Below are positions 1,496 through 12,356 of a DNA stretch of 64,000 bases, piece by piece. The stretch lies in the NCBI RefSeq assembly GCF_900102425.1, contig NZ_FNBT01000006.1, positions 186,001 to 250,000 on the forward strand, written 5' to 3'. The DNA is from Blastococcus aurantiacus (GTDB lineage: Bacteria; Actinomycetota; Actinomycetes; Mycobacteriales; Geodermatophilaceae). How positions within the stretch are numbered: position 1 is the stretch's first letter; each line of letters begins with the position of its first letter. The position numbers were made by a program, and so were the translations under genes. A model generated the notes under the pieces. The model was given only the letters and a program-made list of their open reading frames with translations, ran no database searches and was not told where the DNA came from.

Positions 1496-3544
1496 ATGGA
1501 GCCACTCCGCCGGTTGCGCGCGACCAGCCTGCTCACCCGGTTCGCCGTGCTGAGCCTGCTGCTCACGATCGCGGTCGGTGTCGTGCTCTCCTCGACGCTG
1601 ACCACCGTCATCGAGGACCGCGCACGTCAGCAGGCCGAGGACGCCGCCCTCATGGCGGTGCGCCTCGGGCTCCAGCCGCAGTTCAGCCGCGCCGACCTCG
1701 CTGCCGGTTTCGACGCCGCGCGACTGGCCGACGTCGAGCAGGCCGTCGACGACGCCTCCGCGCAGTTCGGGGAACGCGGCACGGCGCTGGCCGCCTTCGA
1801 CCCTGTCGAGCTCAAGGTGTTCGGCGCGGACCGGACGATCCTCTACCACTCCGAGCACCCCGAGCTCGTCGGCGAGATCTCGACCTCGGGGGAGCTCCGC
1901 TCCGCGCTCGCCGGGTACGTCGTGTCCGGCTTCGCGCACTCCGCCGACGACGGCGCGGACAGCGAGGACGGCGCGCACCAGCTGCTGGAGGTCTACGTCC
2001 CGCTCCAGTACGACGGCGTCGCCGCGCCGGACGGCGCCATCGAGCTCTACCTGCCCTACGCGCCGGTGGCGGCCGCGGTCCGTGACGACGTCCGCACCAT
2101 GACCGTCACGCTCGGCGTCAGCCTCGCCGTCTTCTACCTGGTCGTCTTCCGGCTGATCGCGTCGGCTTCGACGCGGATGCGCCGGCAGGCGGAGGCGCTG
2201 GGTGCCTCCGCCGACCGCGACCGTCACCGGTCCACGCACGACGCGCTCACCGGGCTGCCCAACTGGGTCCTCCTGCGGGACCGCCTCACGCAGGCGCTCG
2301 CCGCGGCCGCCCGCTCGGAGAGCGAGGTGGCCCTGCTGCTCATCGATCTCGACCGCTTCAAGGAGATCAACGACAGCCTCGGGCACTCCTACGGCGACAA
2401 GCTGCTGGGCCAGGTCGGTCCGCGGCTCCGCTCGGTGCTCCGGGACATGGACACCGTCGGGCGCCTGGGCGGTGACGAGTTCGCCGTCCTGCTCCCGTCG
2501 GTGGACGGCGTCACGGAGGCCGAGGCCGTGGCCGAGCGGCTGCGCCAGGCCCTCCACCAGCCCTTCGACGTCGACGGCGTCATCCTCGACGTGGAGGCCA
2601 GCATCGGCATCGTGCTGTCCCCCTGGCACGGCGCAGACAGCGAGGAGCTGCGCCGCAACGCCGACATCGCGATGTACGCCGCCAAGGAGCTGAAGGCCGG
2701 CGCGGTCGTCTTCCAGCCCGAGGTGCATGCCACCACCCCGGTGCGGCTGTCCGTCCTGGGTGACCTCCGGCGCGCCCTCGACAACGACGGCGAGCTGTTC
2801 CTGCACTACCAGCCCAAGGTCGCCCTGGACGGCGAGCGGATCGAGGGCATGGAGGCCCTGCTGCGCTGGCAGCACCCCACCCAGGGGCTCATCCCCCCGG
2901 GCGAGTTCATCCCGGTGGCCGAGGGGACCGGCATCATCCTGCGGCTGACCGAGCGGGTGCTGGACCTGGCCCTCGCCCAGCAGCGGTGCTGGGTGGACGC
3001 CGGCACCGCTGTCCCGGTAGCGGTCAACCTCTCCACGCGCTGCCTGCTCGACGCCGGCCTGCCCGACCGGGTGCAGCGGCTGCTCGCCGAGCACGGGGTG
3101 CCGGCCGCCCTGCTGCGGCTCGAGGTCACCGAGAGCGCGGTCATGGGCGACGCGGCCCGCTGCATGGACGTCCTGCAGCGGCTGCACGACCTGGGCGTGC
3201 ACCTCTCCATCGACGACTTCGGCACCGGGTACAGCTCGATGGCCTACCTCCGCCGGCTGCCGGTCGACGAGCTGAAGATCGACCGCTCGTTCGTCCTGGG
3301 CATGACCACCACCTCGCAGGACCTGGTCCTGGTGCGCACCGCGATCGACCTGGGGCACAACCTGGGCCTGACGGTCGTGGCGGAGGGCGTCGAAGGGGGC
3401 GAGCACGTCGTCGCGCTGCGGGCGCTCGGGTGCGACGTGGCCCAGGGCTACCACTACGGCCGGCCGATGGCGGCCGGCCCGATGAGCGAGGTGCTGTCCC
3501 GGATGGGCACGATCCACCAGGGCCAGGTGCCCTCGGACCGCTGA
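1496..3544 (+). CDS. Membrane-bound GGDEF-EAL cyclic-di-GMP protein
   Basis: This 682-residue protein makes and/or degrades cyclic di-GMP. TM1 is at ~15-37, an extracytoplasmic sensor region lies at ~38-198, and TM2 (VTLGVSLAVFYLVVFRLI) is at ~200-220. The GGDEF domain (DALTGLPN near 250) has an intact GGDEF active site at 325-329. The EAL domain has EAL at 453-455, EVTESAVM, DDFGTGYSS at ~573 and KIDRSFV. All key catalytic residues look intact in both domains, so either activity is possible. The start lacks a clear Shine-Dalgarno. No partner gene sits in an operon with it; a tRNA on the opposite strand follows 26 bases after the stop. Confidence 0.93.
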   Translation: MEPLRRLRATSLLTRFAVLSLLLTIAVGVVLSSTLTTVIEDRARQQAEDAALMAVRLGLQPQFSRADLAAGFDAARLADVEQAVDDASAQFGERGTALAAFDPVELKVFGADRTILYHSEHPELVGEISTSGELRSALAGYVVSGFAHSADDGADSEDGAHQLLEVYVPLQYDGVAAPDGAIELYLPYAPVAAAVRDDVRTMTVTLGVSLAVFYLVVFRLIASASTRMRRQAEALGASADRDRHRSTHDALTGLPNWVLLRDRLTQALAAAARSESEVALLLIDLDRFKEINDSLGHSYGDKLLGQVGPRLRSVLRDMDTVGRLGGDEFAVLLPSVDGVTEAEAVAERLRQALHQPFDVDGVILDVEASIGIVLSPWHGADSEELRRNADIAMYAAKELKAGAVVFQPEVHATTPVRLSVLGDLRRALDNDGELFLHYQPKVALDGERIEGMEALLRWQHPTQGLIPPGEFIPVAEGTGIILRLTERVLDLALAQQRCWVDAGTAVPVAVNLSTRCLLDAGLPDRVQRLLAEHGVPAALLRLEVTESAVMGDAARCMDVLQRLHDLGVHLSIDDFGTGYSSMAYLRRLPVDELKIDRSFVLGMTTTSQDLVLVRTAIDLGHNLGLTVVAEGVEGGEHVVALRALGCDVAQGYHYGRPMAAGPMSEVLSRMGTIHQGQVPSDR

Positions 3545-3570: not shown

Positions 3571-3644
3571 TGGAGCGGGTGACGAGAATCGAACTCGCAC
3601 TGTCAGCTTGGGAAGCTGATGTTCTACCATTGAACTACACCCGC
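3571..3644 (-). tRNA. tRNA-Gly (anticodon CCC)
   Basis: The complement folds as a 74-base tRNA including an encoded CCA. The acceptor stem is GCGGGTG/CACCCGC, the D arm contains TTCAATGGTAGAAC, the anticodon stem TCAGC/GCTGA closes the loop TTCCCAA (CCC at 34-36), and the T arm carries GTTCGATTC. The short D-loop form is typical of bacterial tRNA-Gly. Confidence 0.96.
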
Positions 3645-4447: not shown

Positions 4448-4503
4448 GGATGAGAGCTCTCTCATCCAGCTCTCACGCGCAGGTCACCGGTCCGGTGCAG
4501 GCT
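4448..4503 (+). promoter_or_regulatory. Promoter/operator 1 of the two-component regulon
   Basis: A perfect 9-2-9 palindrome (GGATGAGAG-CT-CTCTCATCC, 4448-4467) overlaps a direct repeat, CTCATCC (4461-4467)-AGCT-CTCACGC (4472-4478), in OmpR-type 7-4-7 spacing. Nineteen bases later comes CAGGCT (4498-4503), six bases before the GTG of the small acidic protein gene. The same geometry recurs at 7442-7484 and 8752-8794. The RR encoded downstream is the obvious candidate ligand. Confidence 0.6.
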
Positions 4504-4509
4504 GGGCCC

Positions 4510-4836
4510 GTGCGCATCCGCCCGGCCCTGCTCGCGGCCTCGGCGGTCGTGCTGCTCGCCGTGCTGCTCGGGGGATGGTTGCTGATGCGGCCGGTCGACC
4601 CGGCCGGCGGCACGGTGCCGGCGCCGATCACCGTGCCCGGCCGGCCGTCGGGCACGGTCTCACCGACCCCGCCGCCGACCGGGACGCCGCCGGACCCCGT
4701 CCCGGTGCCGGGTGACGTGGTCCCCCCACCACCGGTGCCTGACGACGACGGCCCGGACGACGACGGCCCGGATGACGACGGCCCGGACGACGACGGCCCG
4801 GATGACGACGGCCCGGATGACGACGATGGCGGCTGA
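4510..4836 (+). CDS. Small membrane-anchored acidic repeat protein
   Basis: This 108-residue protein starts with a short basic stretch and one hydrophobic helix (ALLAASAVVLLAVLLGGWLLM, ~5-26). A Pro/Thr/Gly-rich spacer (~30-75) follows, then an acidic tail of DDDGP pentapeptides encoded by a 15-base tandem repeat. Topology predicts an anchored protein with an extracytoplasmic polyanionic tail. The GTG start is chosen because CAGGCT sits six bases upstream, giving a likely leaderless mRNA. Its 3' end overlaps the histidine kinase start by 11 bases, so the two are translationally linked. I recognise no family; cation binding or cell-wall contact sensing is only a guess. Confidence 0.6.
   Translation: MRIRPALLAASAVVLLAVLLGGWLLMRPVDPAGGTVPAPITVPGRPSGTVSPTPPPTGTPPDPVPVPGDVVPPPPVPDDDGPDDDGPDDDGPDDDGPDDDGPDDDDGG
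4741..4824 (+). repeat. 15-base tandem repeat encoding DDDGP
   Basis: About five and a half units of GACGACGACGGCCCG, with GAC/GAT variation, sit at the 3' end of the small acidic gene and run up to the kinase ATG. The unit length is a multiple of three, so gains or losses change tail length without a frameshift. Confidence 0.9.
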
Positions 4837-6280
4837 CCGCCACACCCTGGGACGGTGGGCGCCGCGGGCGGCGCGCACCCGCATCATCGGCTGGGTCCTC
4901 CTCCTGGTGCTGCTCGCCCTGGCGCTGGTCACCTTCGTCACCTGGCGATTGCTGATCCGGACCATCGACGAGCGCATGGACACCGCGCTGCGGGCCGAGG
5001 TCGAGGAGTTCACCCAGATCGCATCGGCCGACGTCGACCCGGACACCGGTCGTCCCTTCGCCACCGTCGACGACGTCCTGCAGACCCTGATCACCTACAA
5101 CCTGGCCCGACCCAACGAGAAGTTCCTCGGCTACGTCGACGGGCGGTACCGCTTCCAGAGCCGGATCGAGGCGCCGATCCTGCTCAGCGAGGACCCCGCC
5201 TTCACGGCGCTGGCCGGCTCGGTGACGGACACCGCGATGGGCAGCTACGACAGCGCGGCCGGCGAGGTCCGCTACCTGGCCGTCCCGGTGACACTGGCGA
5301 GCGATCCGTCGCGGGGGGTCGCCGTCGTGGCCTACTTCGCCGACCAGGAACGGGAGTCCGCCGACGAGTCCGCCCAGCTCATGCTGGCCGTGGGCGCGGG
5401 CACGATGCTCCTCGCCGCTGCCGGCGCCTGGGTGGTGGCGGGCCGGGTGCTGCAGCCGGTCCGGGACGTCGCGGCCACCGCCCACGGCATCACCGAGACC
5501 GACCTCTCCGGCCGCATCCCGGTGGACGGCCGGCCGGGAGACGAACTCACCGAGCTGGCCGTGACGGTCAACGCCATGCTGGACCGGGTGGAGCGCGGCG
5601 TCGCGGCGCAGCGGCGCTTCCTGGACGACGCGGGGCACGAGCTGCGCACGCCGATCACCATCGTGCGCGGGCACCTGGACGTGCTGGACCCCGCCGATCC
5701 GGCCGACGTCCGCGAGACCGTGGCGCTGGTCGACGACGAGCTGGACCGGATGAACCGGCTCGTGTCGGACCTCCTGCTGCTCGCGCGGGCCGAGCAGCCC
5801 GCCTTCGTGCGACCGCAGCCGGTGGACGTCGCCGCCCTGACCGCCGACGTGTTCGGCAAGGTGCGCCGTCTTGCCGAGCGCGAGTGGGTGCTGGAGACCG
5901 CCGCGGACGCCGACGTGCCGCTCGATCCGCAGCGGGTGACCCAGGCGCTGGTGGCGCTGGCGGACAACGCCGCCAGGTACACCGCGCCCGGTGACCGGAT
6001 CGCGCTCGGCAGCCAGGTGTCCGGCGGCGAGCTGCGCTTCTGGGTGTCCGACTCCGGACCGGGGATCGCCGAGGAGGACCGCGCGCGGGTGTTCGAGCGG
6101 TTCGCCCGAGGCGCCGCCGGTGCCCGCCGGTCCGACGGTGCGGGGCTCGGGCTGTCGATCGTCCAGGCCATCGCAGCGGCCCACGGAGGGCGCGTCCTGC
6201 TCGACGGCCGGCCGGGGTCCGGCGCCACGTTCACCGTCGTCCTGCCGGCCGACGCCCACCGTCCGCAGGAGGACCCATGA
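4826..6280 (+). CDS. Two-component sensor histidine kinase
   Basis: This 484-residue classical HK has TM1 at ~20-42, an extracytoplasmic sensor of ~145 residues, TM2 at ~188-212 and a HAMP linker (VLQPVRDVAATAHGITETDLSGRIP). The HisKA dimer domain carries the phospho-acceptor His271 in FLDDAGHELRTPIT. The HATPase domain has an N box (ALADNAARYT), G1 (DSGPGI) and G2 (GAGLGLSIV). The start at the ATG of MAADRHTLG is preferred over upstream GTGs, which would translate the repeat out of frame. It overlaps the preceding acidic gene by 11 bases and the RR by 4 (ATGA), so the three form one operon. Confidence 0.93.
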   Translation: MAADRHTLGRWAPRAARTRIIGWVLLLVLLALALVTFVTWRLLIRTIDERMDTALRAEVEEFTQIASADVDPDTGRPFATVDDVLQTLITYNLARPNEKFLGYVDGRYRFQSRIEAPILLSEDPAFTALAGSVTDTAMGSYDSAAGEVRYLAVPVTLASDPSRGVAVVAYFADQERESADESAQLMLAVGAGTMLLAAAGAWVVAGRVLQPVRDVAATAHGITETDLSGRIPVDGRPGDELTELAVTVNAMLDRVERGVAAQRRFLDDAGHELRTPITIVRGHLDVLDPADPADVRETVALVDDELDRMNRLVSDLLLLARAEQPAFVRPQPVDVAALTADVFGKVRRLAEREWVLETAADADVPLDPQRVTQALVALADNAARYTAPGDRIALGSQVSGGELRFWVSDSGPGIAEEDRARVFERFARGAAGARRSDGAGLGLSIVQAIAAAHGGRVLLDGRPGSGATFTVVLPADAHRPQEDP

Positions 6281-6939
6281 GCCGCGTGCTGATCGCCGAG
6301 GACGAGCCCCGCATCGCCTCCTTCATCGAGAAGGGGCTGCGGGCCAACGGGTTCTCGACCTCCGTGGCGGCCGACGGGGGCGCCGCCCGCACGCAGGCGG
6401 CCAGCGGGGAGTTCGACCTGCTGGTCCTGGACATCGGACTGCCGGTCATGGACGGCTTCGAGGTGCTGCGCCGGCTGCGCGCCGAGCGGAACCCCATCCC
6501 GGTGATCATCCTGACCGCGCGGGACAGCGTGCAGGACACCGTGGCGGGGCTGGAGGGCGGCGCGGACGACTACATGCCCAAGCCCTTCCGGTTCGAGGAG
6601 CTGCTCGCCCGGGTGCGGCTGCGGCTGGCGACCGACCGCACGGTCGAGCTCACCGTGCTCACCTGCGGCGAGCTGTCCCTGGACCTCCGTACCCGCCGGG
6701 CGCGGGTCGGGGACGCGACGGTCGACCTGTCCGCGCGGGAGTTCGCGCTGGCCGAGACGTTCCTGCGGCACCCGGGCCAGGTGCTGGCGCGGGAGCAACT
6801 GCTCAGCCACGTGTGGGGCTATGACTTCGACCCGGGTTCCAACGTGGTCGACGTCTACGTGCGGTACCTGCGCCGGAAGATCGGCGCCGACCGGATCGAG
6901 ACGGTGCGCGGGATGGGCTACCGCCTCGTCGAGGACTGA
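6277..6939 (+). CDS. OmpR/PhoB-family response regulator
   Basis: This is a 220-residue response regulator. The receiver domain has the acidic pair EDE (8-10), phospho-acceptor Asp52 (LLVLDIGLPVMDG), the LTARD switch Thr and Lys near 102 (PKPF). A winged-helix DNA-binding domain (~130-218) ends in VVDVYVRYLRRKIG and TVRGMGYRL. It overlaps the kinase by four bases. Members of this family bind tandem direct repeats. The CTCATC 7-4-7 repeats in front of its own operon and of two neighbouring genes are its probable sites. The regulon reading is an inference from spacing and sequence. Confidence 0.95.
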   Translation: MSRVLIAEDEPRIASFIEKGLRANGFSTSVAADGGAARTQAASGEFDLLVLDIGLPVMDGFEVLRRLRAERNPIPVIILTARDSVQDTVAGLEGGADDYMPKPFRFEELLARVRLRLATDRTVELTVLTCGELSLDLRTRRARVGDATVDLSAREFALAETFLRHPGQVLAREQLLSHVWGYDFDPGSNVVDVYVRYLRRKIGADRIETVRGMGYRLVED

Positions 6940-6951
6940 CCGGTACGACGG

Positions 6952-7001
6952 GACCGCCGGCCCGCACGCTTCCCCGGGGCGGGGCGCGCGGACCGGCGGT
7001 C
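6952..7001. terminator. Long-loop hairpin between converging genes
   Basis: GACCGCCGG (6952-6960) pairs with CCGGCGGTC (6993-7001) across a GC-rich loop. It lies between the RR stop and the stop of the convergent acidic protein gene and may serve both strands. There is no T-tract. Confidence 0.4.
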
Positions 7002-7019
7002 GCGGCGGTGCGGCCGGGA

Positions 7020-7400
7020 TCAGTTGTCGGGGGAGGCCGCGGACTGGGCCGACTGGGCGGTCTGGGCGGTCTGGACGTCGTCCGGGGTGGCGTCGTCCGG
7101 GGTGGCGTCGTCCGGGGTGGCGTCGTCGGGGGTGGCCGTGTCGGGCGAGGCGTCGTCGGTGCTGTCGATGGCGCTCTCGTTCGGGGAGTCGGCGCTCTCG
7201 GGCGAGGCGTCCACCGGCGCGTCGACCGGCGCTTCGACCGGGGCGTCGGCCGGGGCGTCGACGGCGGCGACCGAGACGCCGGCGGGGAGTGGCCGGTCGC
7301 GGTCGTCGTCGGCAGCCGCGACGCCGATGCCGGTGGCGCCCAGGCCGGTCAGCGCTGCGCCGAAGGTGACGATCTTCCAGGTGGCGGGGCGGTGGGTCAT
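7020..7400 (-). CDS. Exported acidic low-complexity protein
   Basis: This 126-residue protein begins with a signal peptide (KIVTFGAALTGLGATGIGVAAA; a cut near AAA-DD is plausible). The rest is almost entirely Asp, Ala, Pro, Ser and Thr. It comprises an APVDAPVDA block, a Ser-rich acidic middle, four TPDDA units encoded by a 15-base tandem repeat, and a TAQTAQSAQSA tail. A GAGGAG Shine-Dalgarno supports the ATG. Its promoter carries the same direct repeat and spacing as the two-component operon, and the protein resembles the operon's own DDDGP protein in composition. No family recognised; I infer a cell-envelope polyanion controlled by the neighbouring RR. Confidence 0.65.
   Translation of the reverse strand: MTHRPATWKIVTFGAALTGLGATGIGVAAADDDRDRPLPAGVSVAAVDAPADAPVEAPVDAPVDASPESADSPNESAIDSTDDASPDTATPDDATPDDATPDDATPDDVQTAQTAQSAQSAASPDN
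7076..7135 (-). repeat. 15-base tandem repeat encoding TPDDA
   Basis: Four units of TCGTCCGGGGTGGCG (plus strand; the last unit diverges) encode TPDDA pentapeptides in the exported acidic protein. As in the DDDGP repeat 2.3 kb away, the unit is 15 bases and encodes paired aspartates. Confidence 0.85.
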
Positions 7401-7441
7401 GTCGTGCTCCTCGTGCTGGGGGGTCTCGCTCGGACGACTCC

Positions 7442-7484
7442 AGGTTCTCCACCGGAGGTGAGGGGTCGGGGAGAGACCGATGAG
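7442..7484 (-). promoter_or_regulatory. Promoter/operator 2 of the two-component regulon
   Basis: Read on the minus strand: CTCATCG (7484-7478), GTCT, CTCCCCG (7473-7467), then exactly 19 bases, then GAACCT (7447-7442) as the -10. The predicted start is near 7436, giving a ~36-base leader with a Shine-Dalgarno before the ATG at 7400. A palindrome-like CGATGAGGGCTCTCTCATCC (7479-7498) matches 18 of 20 bases of the site at 4448-4467. Confidence 0.6.
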
Positions 7485-7491
7485 GGCTCTC

Positions 7492-8745
7492 TCATCCCCG
7501 TGCGGGGCCCGCCCAGCGCTCCGCCAGCGCGATCCGCGCCTCGGATCGCGCTGCCCAGTCGGCCTCCAGCACGCGGAACGGGCCGGTGGCCAGGCCGAGC
7601 AGCACGGCGGCCACCCGGGGGCGCAGCTGGGCAGCCGGCCATCGGCGCAGGGCCGCCTCCTCCAGCTCCGCCCGGTAGCGGACGGCGAGAGCGGGCGCGG
7701 GCAGGATCGTCTCCAGCAGCGCCAGGTGCCCGAGGAGCGTCGACCAGTCGTCGATCCGGCGCCCCCGGCCGACGGTGTCGACGTCGAGCAGCCCCACCAC
7801 CGCGCCGTCCTCGACCAGCAGTTGCGACTCGTAGAAGTCCCCGTGCACCGGCACCTCGGGGTGCTCGCCCGGATCGGCGGCGCGGAGGGCGCCGACCAGG
7901 CGGTCCAGTCGAGCCCGCTGCGCGGGCAGCACCAGACCGAGCACCGTCGCGTGGTCACCGATCCGTGCCTGCGCGTCGCCCGGGCGGCTCCGGCCCACGG
8001 GAGTCACCCGCGCCGCGGTCGCGGGGAGCGCGTCCAGGAGGCCGTCGATGCCTTCGGCGTCGGGCAGGCCCGCGCCGTCCCTGGCGAGGAGCTCGCGCAT
8101 CGGCGTCCCGGGAAGCCCCGGCAGCACGATCACGCCGTCGTCTGTGCAGCCGAGCACAGGGGGCACGGGCACCGCCCCGTCGAGGACTGCGTGCCGCTCG
8201 ACCAGCCGGGGGGCGGCGACGGGGCGGACCACCTTGAGGAACAGCGACGCCGCGCCCGTCGACGCCTCCACCACCGCACGGCGCCCGGGCCGGTAGGCGC
8301 GCAGCCGCATCCGGAGCGGGCCTTCGGTGAGGCCCAGTTCCGCGAGCCGGGTGCCGGCGGCGGTCGCGCGGCTCGCCCAGGCCAGCCCGGGCAGCGCCGG
8401 GTCCAGCGGCCAGCGCCAGACGCCGACCGTGACGCACTCCCCGTCGATCACGCCCTCCAGCACGGTCGCGCCGGTGGGGATCCGGGCGCCGGTGGTGGCG
8501 GCAAGGGATTCGCGGGTGCGCCGTCCGTCGGCCCAGGCGACCTCGGCGGCGTACTGCACGGTCGCCGCACCGCTGGGCTGCACCGTGGTGCCCGTGGCGC
8601 GCAGCTGCGTCACCTGCCCGCGGACCGGGGCCAGTGCGGCGTCCCAGAGCTCGCCCGCCTCCTCGCCGAGCAGCAGGCGGAGGGCGGGCGGCCAGGTCCG
8701 GCGCAGTGCCGGGGACACCGGTGGTGCAGGGGCTGTCGGGGTCAC
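7492..8745 (-). CDS. Aminoglycoside-phosphotransferase-like kinase
   Basis: This protein of about 417 residues has the APH/choline-kinase fold in its C-terminal half. VPVHGDFYESQLL carries the Brenner HGD motif and GLLDVDTVGRGRRIDDWS the Mg-binding Asp; RAVVEASTGAASLFLKVV resembles the ATP-binding Lys strand. The N-terminal ~170 residues are specific to actinobacterial members and their role is unknown. The substrate is not deducible. I prefer the GTG at 8745 because CAACGT lies six bases before it and is itself 19 bases after a CTCATCC direct repeat, exactly as in the two-component operon. An ATG at 8769 is the alternative start. Confidence 0.75.
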   Translation of the reverse strand: MTPTAPAPPVSPALRRTWPPALRLLLGEEAGELWDAALAPVRGQVTQLRATGTTVQPSGAATVQYAAEVAWADGRRTRESLAATTGARIPTGATVLEGVIDGECVTVGVWRWPLDPALPGLAWASRATAAGTRLAELGLTEGPLRMRLRAYRPGRRAVVEASTGAASLFLKVVRPVAAPRLVERHAVLDGAVPVPPVLGCTDDGVIVLPGLPGTPMRELLARDGAGLPDAEGIDGLLDALPATAARVTPVGRSRPGDAQARIGDHATVLGLVLPAQRARLDRLVGALRAADPGEHPEVPVHGDFYESQLLVEDGAVVGLLDVDTVGRGRRIDDWSTLLGHLALLETILPAPALAVRYRAELEEAALRRWPAAQLRPRVAAVLLGLATGPFRVLEADWAARSEARIALAERWAGPARG

Positions 8746-8751
8746 CCGGCC

Positions 8752-8794
8752 ACGTTGGGGGGCGCACATGGCAGCCGGATGAGACGGGGATGAG
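8752..8794 (-). promoter_or_regulatory. Promoter/operator 3 of the two-component regulon
   Basis: Minus strand: CTCATCC (8794-8788), CCGT, CTCATCC (8783-8777), 19 bases, then CAACGT (8757-8752), six bases before the GTG at 8745. This is the best-conserved copy of the repeat, with two identical half sites at 11-base spacing. Confidence 0.6.
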
Positions 8795-8890: not shown

Positions 8891-11593
8891 TCAGATCGCG
8901 ACGCCGGTGCAGGAGGCGGAGCAGTCCACCGACCAGATGCCGCGCAGCGCCGAGAAGGTCGCCGAGCGGACCAGCCGTTCACCAGCGGGGCCGGTGCGCT
9001 CGACCGGCCCGGTCCCCGGGGAGCCCGGGGTGCTCGGCGTCCCGGTCGGGGGCGGGGTCGTGCCGGAACCGGGCGGCGTGCCGCCGGGCGTGGTGCCGCC
9101 ACCGGGCGTGGTGCCCGGCGCCGGAGTGCCGCCGGCCGGGGGTGCGTCCGCGCGGTAGGTGAGCGCCGCGGGCAGCACCGTCGAGCGGCCGTCGGGAGCG
9201 AACACGGCGACGTCGTAGGTCCCCGCCACGCGGGCCGGCACCCGGAACTGCACCCGCGTCGCCGACTCGGAGACCACGGTCGCCCGGGCCGTCCCGCCGA
9301 TGAGGACCTGCGGCCGCGCCGGCAGCGAGGTCCCGGTGACGGTCACCAGCGTGCCGCCGGCCACCGACACGGTGTTCGGGCTCAACGAGGTGATCCCGAA
9401 CGCGCCGATCGAGGGGTAGGTGGTCGTGTCCGGCACCGGGGTGCCCGGCGACGTCCCACCGGAGGGAGGCTGCACCGGGGCGGGGGGAGTGGCCGGGGTC
9501 GGGCCACCAGGATTCGTCCCGGTGCCCGGGTTGGCCGGCGTGGTGCCCGGTGCCGGTGTGGCCGGAGCTGGCACGGCCGGGGCCGGTGTGCCCGGCGCAG
9601 GCGTCGTCGGGCCCGGAGCAGGGGCGCCCGGGGTGGAGCCACCGGGCGGCGTGCCGCCGGGGTTCGGAGTGCCCGGGGTGGGCGTCCCGGGGGTCGGGGC
9701 GCTGGGAACCGGGGCACCCGGCACCGGGGTCCCAGGAGCAGGAGCGGGCGCGGGCGTGCCGGGAACCGGCGTGCCCGGGACCGGCGTGCGCGGCGGAGTG
9801 GTCCCACCCGGCGCCCCCGGTGTGGTGCCCGGTGCGGTGCCGCCACCCGGCGTCGTGCCCGGGGTCGTCCCGGGGGTGCTCCCGCCACCAGATCCGGGGA
9901 GGGACGTCCGCACGAGCAGCGGAGCGGCCGACGCCCGGCCGACGGGGGTGCCGTCGCGGAGCAGCTGGACCGTCAGCACGTACCGGCCGTCGCCCAGGGG
10001 CATGGTCGGAGACAGGCCGAGGCCGGCCAGGTCCGGGACCCGGCCCAGGTCGAAGACGGCGCTGCCCGTGTCGTCCGTGGCGACGGTCGTGCCGCCGAGC
10101 GTGACGGGCTTGTCGGCGAGGGCCCAGATGTCGCCCTCGAACTCCATGCCCAGGCCCAGGGCGACCGAGTAGTCGCCGCCCGCGGCCGAACCGCTGACGC
10201 CGATGCGGGGGGAGACGGTGCCCGCGGGTGCCGTCATGGAGGTGAACGCGTACCGGACCGACTCGGCAGGGGTGCCCGTCAGCCGGGCGAGGGACAGCCG
10301 TCCCCCCGTCACGGACCGGCCGGCGAACGCGGGCTTCGGGTCGACGTCGTCGAGCAGCGTCTGCTTGATCTCGGCGGCGGAGGCCTGCGGCATCGCGGCG
10401 CGGTACAGGGCGACGGCGCCGGCGACGATCGGGGAGGAGAAGGACGTGCCGTTCGCCAGCGAGTAGCCACCGGTGTTGGTGGTGACGACGGTCTGCGAGC
10501 CCGGGGCGAACAGGTCGACCGCGGTGGCGCCGTAGCCGGAGAAGCTGCTCACGGTGTCGGCCGCGGTGGAGGCCCCGACGCTGATGAGGTTCCAGTCGGT
10601 CAGGCTCGCCGGGTAGACCGGGTTCGTGTCGCGGTCGCCGCTGTCGTTGGCGGCTGCGGCCACGACCAGCACATCGTGCGCGGCCGCGTAGGCGACGGCC
10701 GACCGCAGCGCGGTCAGGGCGCTGCCGCCCATGGATCCGCCCCACGACGCGTTGATGACGTCGGCCCCGTGGTCGACGGCGTAGCGGATCGCCTCGGCTC
10801 CCGCATAGACGTCGACGGTGCTGCCGCCGCCGATCACCAGCGGCATGATCGTGACCTCGGGTGCCACGCCGGCCAGGCCGATGCCGTTGTCCGCCCGGGC
10901 GCCGACGGTGCCGGACACCATCGCGCCGTGGCTGCCCATGCTGCCGTTGTCGATGTCCGCGCTGTTCGTGTACCAGTTCCAGCCGTGGCAGTCGCCGCGC
11001 TTGCCGTTGCCGTCGGTGTCGGCCGTGCCGCACGGCTCCGCGGGGTTCACCCACAGCGAGCCGGCGAGGTCCGGGTGGTCGGAGTCGAAGCCCGAGTCGA
11101 CGACCGCGACCACGATGCCGCCGCCCCGGGTGACGTCCCAGGCGTCGGGGGCATCGGTGTCGGCGTCCGCGACGACAGGGCTCTGGGTGGGCGCGTTGGA
11201 GCCGGTGTTCTCGAGGTGCCATCCGTGGCTGCGGCCCAGGGGGTCGGTCACCGAGCCGAACAGGGGCACCGACGTGGACGGCTCGACGGTGCCGACGCCG
11301 GCCACGCCGGCGAGGTCCCGGGGCGTGAGTGCGTCGGTCGCGACGAGCGCGCGCCCGTCGCTGAGCGGCTGCGCACTCACCACGCCGTCGACGGCGGCGA
11401 GGCCGGCCAGCACGTCGTCGACCGGGCCGCCCTCGGCCGCGGCGACGACGTAGCGGGTCAGCCCGTCGCCCGGGCCGAAGTCGGTGACGACGGGCAGGGA
11501 CGGCGCCGCGAGGGCCGTGTAGGCCGCCGCTCCGCCGTACCCGGCCGCCAGGGCGGTCGCCAGGATCACCGCCTGGACGCGCTTGCTCTTCAT
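8891..11593 (-). CDS. Secreted subtilisin-family (S8) protease with IPT/TIG domain
   Basis: This is a 900-residue exported serine protease. A signal peptide ([26 protein letters not shown]) selects the ATG at 11593. An inhibitor-like prodomain (~35-120) precedes the catalytic core. Asp~165 lies in [14 protein letters not shown], His~220 in [10 protein letters not shown], the oxyanion Asn in [11 protein letters not shown] and Ser~383 in [13 protein letters not shown] beta-rich region follows. Next come a ~170-residue Pro/Gly/Thr linker of PGTP-type repeats, an IPT/TIG Ig-like domain ([25 protein letters not shown]), a second linker and a C-terminal module ending in [13 protein letters not shown] with two Cys. 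It probably spans or binds the cell wall; the target is unknown. Confidence 0.9.
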
Positions 11594-11638
11594 CCGTCGA
11601 GCCCTCCGCACGCCCGCCACCCGGCCCGTCCGGGAAGA

Positions 11639-11662
11639 GCCGGCGCCCCGTGGGGAGCCGGC
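11639..11662 (-). other. Hairpin in the 5' leader of the S8 protease
   Basis: GCCGGC-GCCCCGTGGGGA-GCCGGC folds into a strong stem-loop 46-69 bases upstream of the protease ATG. A GGAGG ribosome site lies between the hairpin and the start. It could stabilise the mRNA or control translation. No known riboswitch consensus was recognised. Confidence 0.4.
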
Positions 11663-11755
11663 AGGCGTCATCGCGCTCGCAACGGCCGGCGCACGGGTGG
11701 GCTTGAGCAGGTTCACCCGGGGGCTCACCCGGAAGGAGGAGCCCGGGACGTTCCC

Positions 11756-11761
11756 TAGACT
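11756..11761 (+). promoter_or_regulatory. -10 box of a leaderless dcd transcript
   Basis: TAGACT followed by seven bases and then the ATG of dcd places the predicted transcription start on the start codon itself. There is no Shine-Dalgarno. Confidence 0.6.
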
Positions 11762-11768
11762 CCGCGCC

Positions 11769-12356
11769 ATGCTGCTGAGCGACCGCGACATCACGGCCGC
11801 GATCGCCGAGGGACGCCTCGGCATCGAGCCCTACGACCCGGGCCTCGTGCAGCCCTCGAGCATCGACGTCCGGCTCGACCGGTTCTTCCGCGTGTTCAAC
11901 AACTCGCGGTACACCCACATCGACCCGGCCGAGCAGCAGGACGACCTCACGACGCTGGTGGAGCCGGACGGGGACGACCCGTTCGTGCTGCACCCCGGTG
12001 AGTTCGTGCTCGGCTCGACCCTCGAGGTGATCAGCCTGCCCGACGACCTGGCCGCGCGGCTGGAGGGCAAGTCGTCGCTGGGCCGCCTGGGGCTGCTCAC
12101 CCACTCCACCGCGGGCTTCGTCGACCCGGGCTTCTCCGGGCACATCACGCTGGAGCTGTCCAACGTGGCCAACCTGCCGATCACCCTCTGGCCGGGCATG
12201 AAGATCGGCCAGCTGTGCATGTTCCGGCTGTCCAGCCCGGCCGAGCACCCGTACGGCTCGGCGGTCTACGGCTCCCGGTACCAGGACCAGCGGGGGCCGA
12301 CGCCGTCCCGGTCCTTCCGCAACTTCACCCGCGCGGAGACCCGTCGGCCGGCCTGA
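11769..12356 (+). CDS. dcd: dCTP deaminase, likely bifunctional with dUTPase activity
   Basis: The 195-residue protein deaminates dCTP and, in actinobacterial relatives, also hydrolyses the dUTP formed to give dUMP for thymidylate synthesis. The signatures are [11 protein letters not shown] near 30, [39 protein letters not shown] (~110-135) with the catalytic Glu in [23 protein letters not shown], and a C-terminal [16 protein letters not shown] lid. It looks very close to the M. tuberculosis bifunctional enzyme, on which I base the dual call. It is divergent from the S8 protease, and its last 32 bases overlap the end of the convergent MFS gene. Confidence 0.95.

What the first reader, a model, noticed from the sequence alone, without database searches (positions are those of the whole stretch)
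4448..8794. Three promoters with identical geometry define a probable RR regulon
Upstream of the acidic-protein/HK/RR operon, the exported acidic protein and the APH-like kinase there is a CTCATC-type direct repeat in 7-4-7 spacing. Each is oriented toward its gene and followed after exactly 19 bases by a NANNNT hexamer (CAGGCT, GAACCT, CAACGT). Two of these hexamers stand six bases before a GTG. The constant spacing across three otherwise unrelated leaders is unlikely by chance and fits activation by the OmpR-type RR encoded between them.
Basis: partly seen in the sequence, partly recalled or inferred. Interest (0 to 1): 0.82.

Follow-up and report, generated by a model that had tools for sequence, protein, structure and literature searches.

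The report
Shared switch for acidic envelope proteins
Three neighbouring bacterial transcription units carry the same DNA switch at the same distance from their start, and the same switch tends to sit beside the same regulator gene in related bacteria, so a sensor-regulator pair very probably turns on a small set of acid-rich surface proteins and a kinase.

Summary
The operator is four half-sites: an upstream inverted GATGAGAG, three direct CTCATC/CTCACC/GTCACC units every 11 bp, 9 bp, then [C/G]ANNNT; site 3 is degenerate. A profile from 47 promoters of 18 relatives, own genome left out, ranks the three sites 1-3 genome-wide. In 112 family genomes the motif follows the regulator gene (both 33, motif only 5, regulator only 2, neither 72). 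The -10 position, not used to choose sites, is fixed: 98 of 105 sites at +37, at most 5% at any of 18 other offsets. Outside the order, 10 of 11 Actinomycetota genomes with an exact match encode this regulator type. Best explanation: the encoded OmpR/PhoB-type regulator activates its own operon, an exported acidic protein gene and an APH-fold kinase gene, PHO-box fashion with another half-site; two promoters probably give leaderless mRNA. Asp-rich products suggest cation sequestration; the signal is unknown. Binding and activation are inferred, not shown. A new regulon and operator variant of a known kind.

The parts
4449..4456 (-). Site 1, inverted half-site (GATGAGAG on the + strand)
   Evidence: same position in relatives
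4461..4488 (+). Site 1, three direct half-sites CTCATC / CTCACG / GTCACC at 11-bp period
   Evidence: rank 1 of the genome scan, 45.3 bits
4498..4503 (+). Site 1, -10-like CAGGCT, 9 bases after the last half-site
4510..4836 (+). Small protein, 108 aa: N-terminal hydrophobic segment, Asp-rich tail; GTG 6 bases after the -10 (leaderless candidate); first gene of the operon
   Evidence: no Pfam or NCBIfam match; family
4826..6280 (+). Sensor histidine kinase (HAMP, HisKA, HATPase_c), overlaps the small protein gene and the regulator gene
6277..6939 (+). OmpR/PhoB-type response regulator
7020..7400 (-). Acidic protein, 126 aa, signal-like N terminus (taken as exported), TPDDA repeats
   Evidence: no Pfam or NCBIfam match
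7442..7447 (-). Site 2, -10-like GAACCT
7457..7484 (-). Site 2, three direct half-sites CTCATC / CTCCCC / CTCACC at 11-bp period
   Evidence: rank 2, 41.5 bits
7489..7496 (+). Site 2, inverted half-site (GATGAGAG on the - strand); overlaps the stop codon of the APH-fold gene
7492..8745 (-). APH-fold kinase (PF01636), 417 aa, GTG 6 bases after the -10 (leaderless candidate)
8752..8757 (-). Site 3, -10-like CAACGT
8767..8794 (-). Site 3, direct half-sites CTCATC / CTCATC / weak GCCATG; no inverted unit
   Evidence: rank 3, 23.9 bits

Best explanation
The three sites are operators of the OmpR/PhoB-type regulator at 6277-6939. When its kinase phosphorylates it, the regulator binds head-to-tail on the three 11-bp direct half-sites, sits where a -35 element would be, and recruits RNA polymerase to a weak [C/G]ANNNT -10. 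An extra subunit on the upstream inverted half-site may nucleate or stabilise binding at sites 1 and 2. It thereby activates its own operon (small membrane protein with Asp-rich tail, kinase, regulator), the exported acidic protein and the APH-fold kinase. In this genome the strong regulon is these three units. Sites 1 and 3 probably give leaderless transcripts starting at GTG; site 2 has a leader of about 35 bases with a ribosome site. Function, inferred only: the response puts Asp-rich chains on the cell surface, most likely to buffer or trap a cationic stress (Ca2+, metal ions or polycations); the small Asp-tailed membrane protein may compete with or damp the sensor. Shown by sequence: sites, geometry, conservation, co-inheritance. 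Inferred: binding, activation, signal, function.
For: Genome-unique pattern. Held-out profile ranks the three sites first. 98 listed hits of at least 28 bits in 112 family genomes, 78 within 6 kb of a regulator orthologue; 2x2 table 33/5/2/72, and 14/5/2/72 on the 93 genomes other than the own one and the 18 that gave the profile. Offset test: NANNNT at +37 in 98 of 105 sites, at most 5% at each of the other 18 offsets tested (28 to 46), background 1.85%; 0 sites of that score in 5 resampled copies; outside Geodermatophilaceae 48 of 52. Phylum: exact 4-half-site pattern in 12 of 396 genomes, reversed control 0; 11 of the 12 encode the regulator, which 45 of 396 do, p 1.4e-10; without the own genome 10 of 11, p 1.1e-9. 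13 of the 15 matches have NANNNT at +37, which was not in the pattern (my count). Recognition-helix stretch constant in 60 of 61 loci. Geometry of PHO boxes: two 7-nt repeats with 4 nt between, later defined as 11-nt units (PMC4415409, passages). Asp-rich tails in the operon's first product across genera.
Against: No binding, expression or phosphorylation data. Sites were located by the half-site score, so conservation of those columns is inflated by selection (not so the -10 columns). Genomes are related, and some named loci are the same strains as the profile's genomes, so p-values overstate independence. A looser family pattern without the inverted unit was far less specific: 28 matches in 21 of 57 genomes, only 11 of them at this locus by my count, 1 in the reversed control. 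Order-wide, only 30 of 42 genomes with a motif hit have the regulator at E<=1e-75, and 31 of 61 regulator genomes have no motif hit at E<=1e-4 (my count). Phylum-wide, 34 of 45 regulator genomes lack the exact pattern, and at least three of the 15 matches (L165, L166, L169) precede ORFs of other kinds. Loci L127 and L131 have the same recognition helix but no operator; four Mycobacterium/Mycolicibacterium loci (L128, L130, L132, L133) lack it before the kinase operon. Site 3 of this genome is degenerate. The cation idea rests on composition only.
Confidence: 0.87

Rival explanations
1. Another, widely conserved actinobacterial regulator with a similar 11-bp direct-repeat box (PhoP/RegX3 or MtrA type) controls the three promoters.
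For: PHO boxes of Streptomyces have the same 11-nt repeat design with half-site GTTCACC (PMC4415409); PolR of Microlunatus binds GTTCACnnnnnGTTCaC (PMC6754071). The third half-site here is GTCACC at site 1.
Against: The strong motif is absent from 72 of 77 family genomes that lack this regulator, although phosphate regulators are expected there (recalled, not tested). Half-sites 1 and 2 are CTCATC/CTCACC, not GTTCACC. A site-1 operator stands before this regulator's own operon in 52 of 60 loci scanned, own window included.
Confidence: 0.06
2. The sites are this regulator's operators but it represses, or the GATGAGAG-N2-CTCTCATC palindrome of site 1 is bound by a different dimeric repressor that also controls the operon.
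For: Most site-1 rows keep an 8-2-8 palindrome; the operators overlap the -35 region, where a repressor would also sit.
Against: The last half-site keeps a constant 9-base distance to a -10 with a poor first base, which fits an activator; site 3 keeps two direct units but has no inverted one here.
Confidence: 0.06
3. The repeats are chance likeness of GC-rich leaders.
For: The pattern was read off the sites themselves.
Against:: genome-unique, zero in the reversed controls of these patterns and zero at that score in resampled sequence, conserved across the order.
Confidence: 0.01

Closest known systems
PHO box / PhoB, PhoP (Streptomyces), RegX3, PolR operators
   Same: 11-bp direct half-sites (7+4), OmpR/PhoB-type regulator bound head-to-tail (PMC4415409 and PMC7866108, passages).
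   Different: Half-site CTCATC/CTCACC instead of GTTCACC or CTGTCAT; extra inverted half-site; regulator below the NCBIfam PhoB cut-off (177.6 against 296.2 bits); regulon of acidic envelope proteins and a kinase, not phosphate genes.
CzcR/SilR/CopR-type metal regulators and CzcS/SilS/CopS kinases
   Same: Best NCBIfam models for regulator and kinase; same kinase-regulator operon type.
   Different: Both below cut-off (202.2 against 279.2; 210.3 against 292.55); no efflux gene seen among the three units.
MprAB of Corynebacterium
   Same: OmpR-type system of Actinobacteria, positive autoregulation, cell-envelope genes.
   Different: Reported binding motif TKTTAAGAAM (PMC12113857, passages), unlike CTCATC repeats.
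PrrA of M. tuberculosis (PDB 1ys6)
   Same: Closest solved relative by sequence, 186 bits.
   Different: Different recognition-helix stretch (TNVVDVFIGYLRRK); operator not compared here.
PhoPQ-MgrB (recalled)
   Same: Small membrane protein made by the regulon that feeds back on the kinase: an analogy for the Asp-tailed protein.
   Different: No sequence relation tested; role here only proposed.

Membership tests
OmpR/PhoB-type response regulators | Receiver domain plus Trans_reg_C winged helix | tested here: met
   PF00072 96.9 bits, PF00486 92.6 bits, both above cut-off
OmpR/PhoB-type response regulators | Target made of direct half-sites one helical turn apart, next to the -10 of activated promoters | tested here: met
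   Sequence level only: units at 11-bp period and 9 bases to the -10; -10 columns A 48 of 50, T 48 of 50
OmpR/PhoB-type response regulators | Physical binding to the proposed operator after phosphorylation | not testable with these tools
   Needs EMSA or footprint
Pho regulon (PhoB/PhoP/RegX3) | Half-site GTTCACC (Streptomyces) or CTGTCAT (E. coli) | tested here: not met
   Consensus here CTCATC, TCTCACC, (G/C)TCACC against the published ones
Pho regulon (PhoB/PhoP/RegX3) | Regulator above PhoB equivalog cut-off | tested here: not met
   177.6 against 296.2 bits
Heavy-metal regulators CzcR/SilR/CopR | Above TIGR01387 cut-off | tested here: not met
   202.2 against 279.2 bits
APH(3') aminoglycoside kinases | Above NCBIfam APH(3') cut-off | tested here: not met
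   21.7 against 400 and 20.1 against 205 bits; only the broad PF01636 domain is met, 39.0 against 23.2
Leaderless genes of Actinobacteria | -10 motif about 7-12 bp before a start codon that is also the transcription start | tested here: inconclusive
   Start codon at +49 or +50 in 62 of 105 sites, near the -10 distance described for mycobacterial starts (PMC3898074, passages); no 5'-end data

The most novel reading that the evidence does not exclude
An old and undescribed regulon of Actinomycetota, possibly shared with cyanobacteria, in which one operator of one inverted and three direct half-sites drives surface proteins with Asp-rich tails plus a kinase-fold enzyme, as a cation-buffering envelope response whose small Asp-tailed membrane protein tunes its own sensor.
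Probability: 0.35. Interest if true: 0.72.

Novelty: new variant of a known kind. Interest (0 to 1): 0.58.

Why it matters
It gives an operator, a regulator and a target set for a two-component system that I found no description of, present in Geodermatophilaceae, Pseudonocardia, Rhodococcus, Saccharomonospora, mycobacteria and other Actinomycetota. The fixed distance from operator to -10 and often to the start codon makes regulon members and start codons predictable from sequence, and the Asp-rich products give a concrete first hypothesis for a signal.

Tried and rejected
A chance origin was tested with reversed patterns, resampled sequence and held-out genomes and rejected. Control by a universal PHO-type regulator was considered and judged unlikely because the motif follows this regulator. 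MprA was set aside on its published motif. Filing the kinase as an APH(3') aminoglycoside phosphotransferase was rejected on NCBIfam cut-offs.

Led nowhere: literature searches for the motif (no paper; 116 papers hold 'response regulator' with TCTCATC anywhere; the 15 listed were seen only as titles and abstract starts and none looked related), a mixed search on actinobacterial systems (12 papers, 10 listed, seen as listing), for Geodermatophilaceae regulators (2 papers, not opened), for poly-Asp membrane proteins with kinases (170 papers, 6 listed, one opened for passages), for PhoB promoter geometry (one paper, not opened). That this regulon is not in print rests on these searches only; the library lacks most subscription journals. 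A structure of the kinase's sensor domain (alignment A2) could not be made because the queue was full.

Flaws of my own: the query for the exported acidic protein was out of frame, so its blast result was ignored and the protein was traced by its operator and N terminus instead; the kinase query there lacked its first Met. caught two rows (L086, L117) that look wrong in frame, and only 12 rows for the exported acidic protein because its search pattern was narrow. In one search hits were transcribed by hand, whose list was cut at the low end. G068 was scored as lacking the regulator at E<=1e-80 but has most of it, 87% identical from residue 67 on, so the table is rather 34/4/2/72.
Full report
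What was claimed and what is there. The window lies at bases 186001-250000 of contig C14 of a 4.16-Mb, 18-contig genome. The nearest named relatives of its kinase are Blastococcus strains (90% identity in Blastococcus sp. DSM 44205). The three repeats, their orientation and the 19-base distance to a NANNNT hexamer are as described.

The full operator. Reading the same promoters in relatives shows that the 7-4-7 repeat is part of a longer unit: GATGAGAG, four bases, CTCATC, five bases, CTCACC (CTCC- at the site-2 promoters of close relatives), five bases, (G/C)TCACC, nine bases, [C/G]ANNNT. Of 50 promoters (3 own, 47 from 18 relatives), positions +38 and +42 are A in 48 and T in 48, and the first -10 base is C in 27, G in 21, A in 1, T in 1. 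I chose positions by half-site score, so those columns are inflated, but the -10 columns were not part of the score. Rows dropped before counting: the site-2 searches in L035 and L041, whose contigs end near the regulator, and L042, whose 52%-identical regulator I do not take for an orthologue. Sites 1 and 2 of the window have all four units; site 3 has two good ones and a weak third.

Held-out tests. A sequence-only profile was built from the 47 relatives' promoters. In the own genome, which was not in the profile, the three sites come first, second and third (45.3, 41.5, 23.9 bits), the next hit has 17.0 bits. So the strong regulon here is just this cluster. In the 112 family genomes held, 98 listed hits reach 28 bits and 78 of them lie within 6 kb of a regulator orthologue. 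By genome: motif and regulator 33, motif only 5, regulator only 2, neither 72; on the 93 genomes other than the own one and the 18 training ones 14, 5, 2, 72. Of the five motif-only genomes, G068 does have most of the regulator. G080 keeps an operator before a piece of the APH-fold gene (residues 12-75, 59% identity, E 1e-17). G037 and G034 keep operators before what looks by eye like the broken start of that gene; tblastn gives only E 0.08 for G037 and nothing for G034. I read G080, G037 and G034 as scars of cassette loss. G045 has an isolated hit before no recognised gene. In the earlier exact-pattern scan of 57 genomes, ATGAGAGN4CTCAYCN4TCTC gave 29 matches in 19 genomes with none in the reversed control, 24 of the 29 at this locus by my count. 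A looser pattern without the inverted unit gave 28 matches in 21 genomes, 11 of them here, and 1 in the reversed control, so the inverted unit adds much of the specificity.

Wider conservation. The kinase search in named genomes gave 77 loci. In 59 of them (L082-L140), 105 sites score at least 20 of 24, none did in five resampled copies of each locus; NANNNT stands at +37 in 98 of 105 and in at most 5% at any other offset from +28 to +46; a start codon stands at +49 or +50 in 62 of 105. The loci include Pseudonocardia, Rhodococcus, Saccharomonospora, Mycobacterium/Mycolicibacterium and Actinomycetospora. Seven Rhodococcus loci that missed the threshold do have the site-1 operator at 17-18 of 24 with the -10 in place; L127 and L131 have none; four Mycobacterium/Mycolicibacterium loci lack it before the kinase operon but have it elsewhere. 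Order-wide, 61 of 298 genomes have the regulator and 42 a motif hit, 30 have both (my count), so half of the regulator genomes have no hit with this family-tuned profile. Phylum-wide, an exact pattern for the four half-sites matched 15 places in 12 of 396 genomes, 0 in the reversed control; 11 of the 12, own genome included, have the regulator, which 45 of 396 have. In several of these the two are on different contigs, so linkage was not shown there. The -10 was not in that pattern, yet is in place at 13 of 15.

The regulator. It is an OmpR/PhoB-type protein that stays below the cut-off of each of the 25 models listed (95 matched). The stretch SNVVDVYVRYLR, which contains the DNA-recognition helix (location recalled from OmpR-family structures), is identical in 60 of 61 loci compared, including an Acidimicrobiaceae MAG; the cyanobacterial one differs by two residues. 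Solved relatives differ there: PrrA, PhoP and BasR.

Mechanism. In the classical PHO box two 7-nt repeats with 4 nt between are bound head-to-tail (PMC4415409, passages read). Here the direct units cover the place of a -35 element and end 9 bases before a -10 that lacks the usual first T; 73% of primary M. tuberculosis starts have TANNNT (PMC3898074, passages). Both points fit activation. Sites 1 and 3 place the GTG where the transcript should begin; about a quarter of M. tuberculosis genes with a primary start are leaderless (same paper). Site 2 has a leader with GAGGAG.

Function. The first gene of the operon makes a small protein with one hydrophobic segment and an Asp-rich tail; 52 such products were read behind site-1 operators in 60 loci, median 106 aa, 20% D+E, 3.3% K+R, with a hydrophobic N terminus in 51 (two rows look out of frame). 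The site-2 product has a signal-like N terminus and is Asp-rich; a database search gave 15 relatives. Neither has a Pfam or NCBIfam match. Extra targets in four genomes of one genus look like lipoproteins with an Asp-rich C terminus, three with a DTDGDGSFSxxD loop. Acidic ORFs follow the operator in other classes too, though L165, L166 and L169 have ORFs of other kinds. I therefore propose a response to cationic stress; this is inference from composition. The kinase-fold product has the broad APH domain only; 709 relatives at E<=1e-20 were found among the 8000 candidates scored, and of the 120 listed those with names are mostly called phosphotransferase, aminoglycoside phosphotransferase family protein or hypothetical protein. 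Its substrate is unknown.

Verdict. It is a new regulon with a variant operator of a known kind.

Noticed in passing
L070, L044, L043: Relatives without the cassette keep operators beside a piece of the APH-fold gene (clear in L070, weak in L044, by eye only in L043), so the set may be lost as a unit.
   Followed up: partly
window 4510-4836 and products read in L082-L140: A small membrane protein family with an Asp-rich C-terminal tail and no domain annotation, encoded behind the site-1 operator (52 rows).
   Followed up: partly
L162, L173: In two distant Actinomycetota an ORF near the operator reads like a Ser/Thr protein kinase (by eye).
   Followed up: no
L067, L074 (glycosyltransferase-like), L075 (sigma-factor-like), L076: Extra operator sites before other genes in single genomes, possible lineage-specific regulon members; gene types read by eye.
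   Followed up: no
L141 (cyanobacterial MAG), 1187 minus strand: ATGAG-CTCATG-TTCATC-CTCATC with the same spacing and TAGAAT at +37, upstream of a 118-aa regulator-like ORF; two related kinases and a 62%-identical regulator lie nearby.
   Followed up: partly
window 7492-8745: The kinase loop reads HGDFYESQ, with Q where APH-type kinases usually have N (recalled motif).
   Followed up: no
window 8891-11824: Subtilisin-like protease ORF with a long Pro/Gly-rich stretch; its end lies next to the kinase-gene promoter.
   Followed up: no
window 3571-3644: tRNA-Gly (ccc) on the minus strand, next to an ORF at 1496-3544 that reads like a GGDEF/EAL protein.
   Followed up: no
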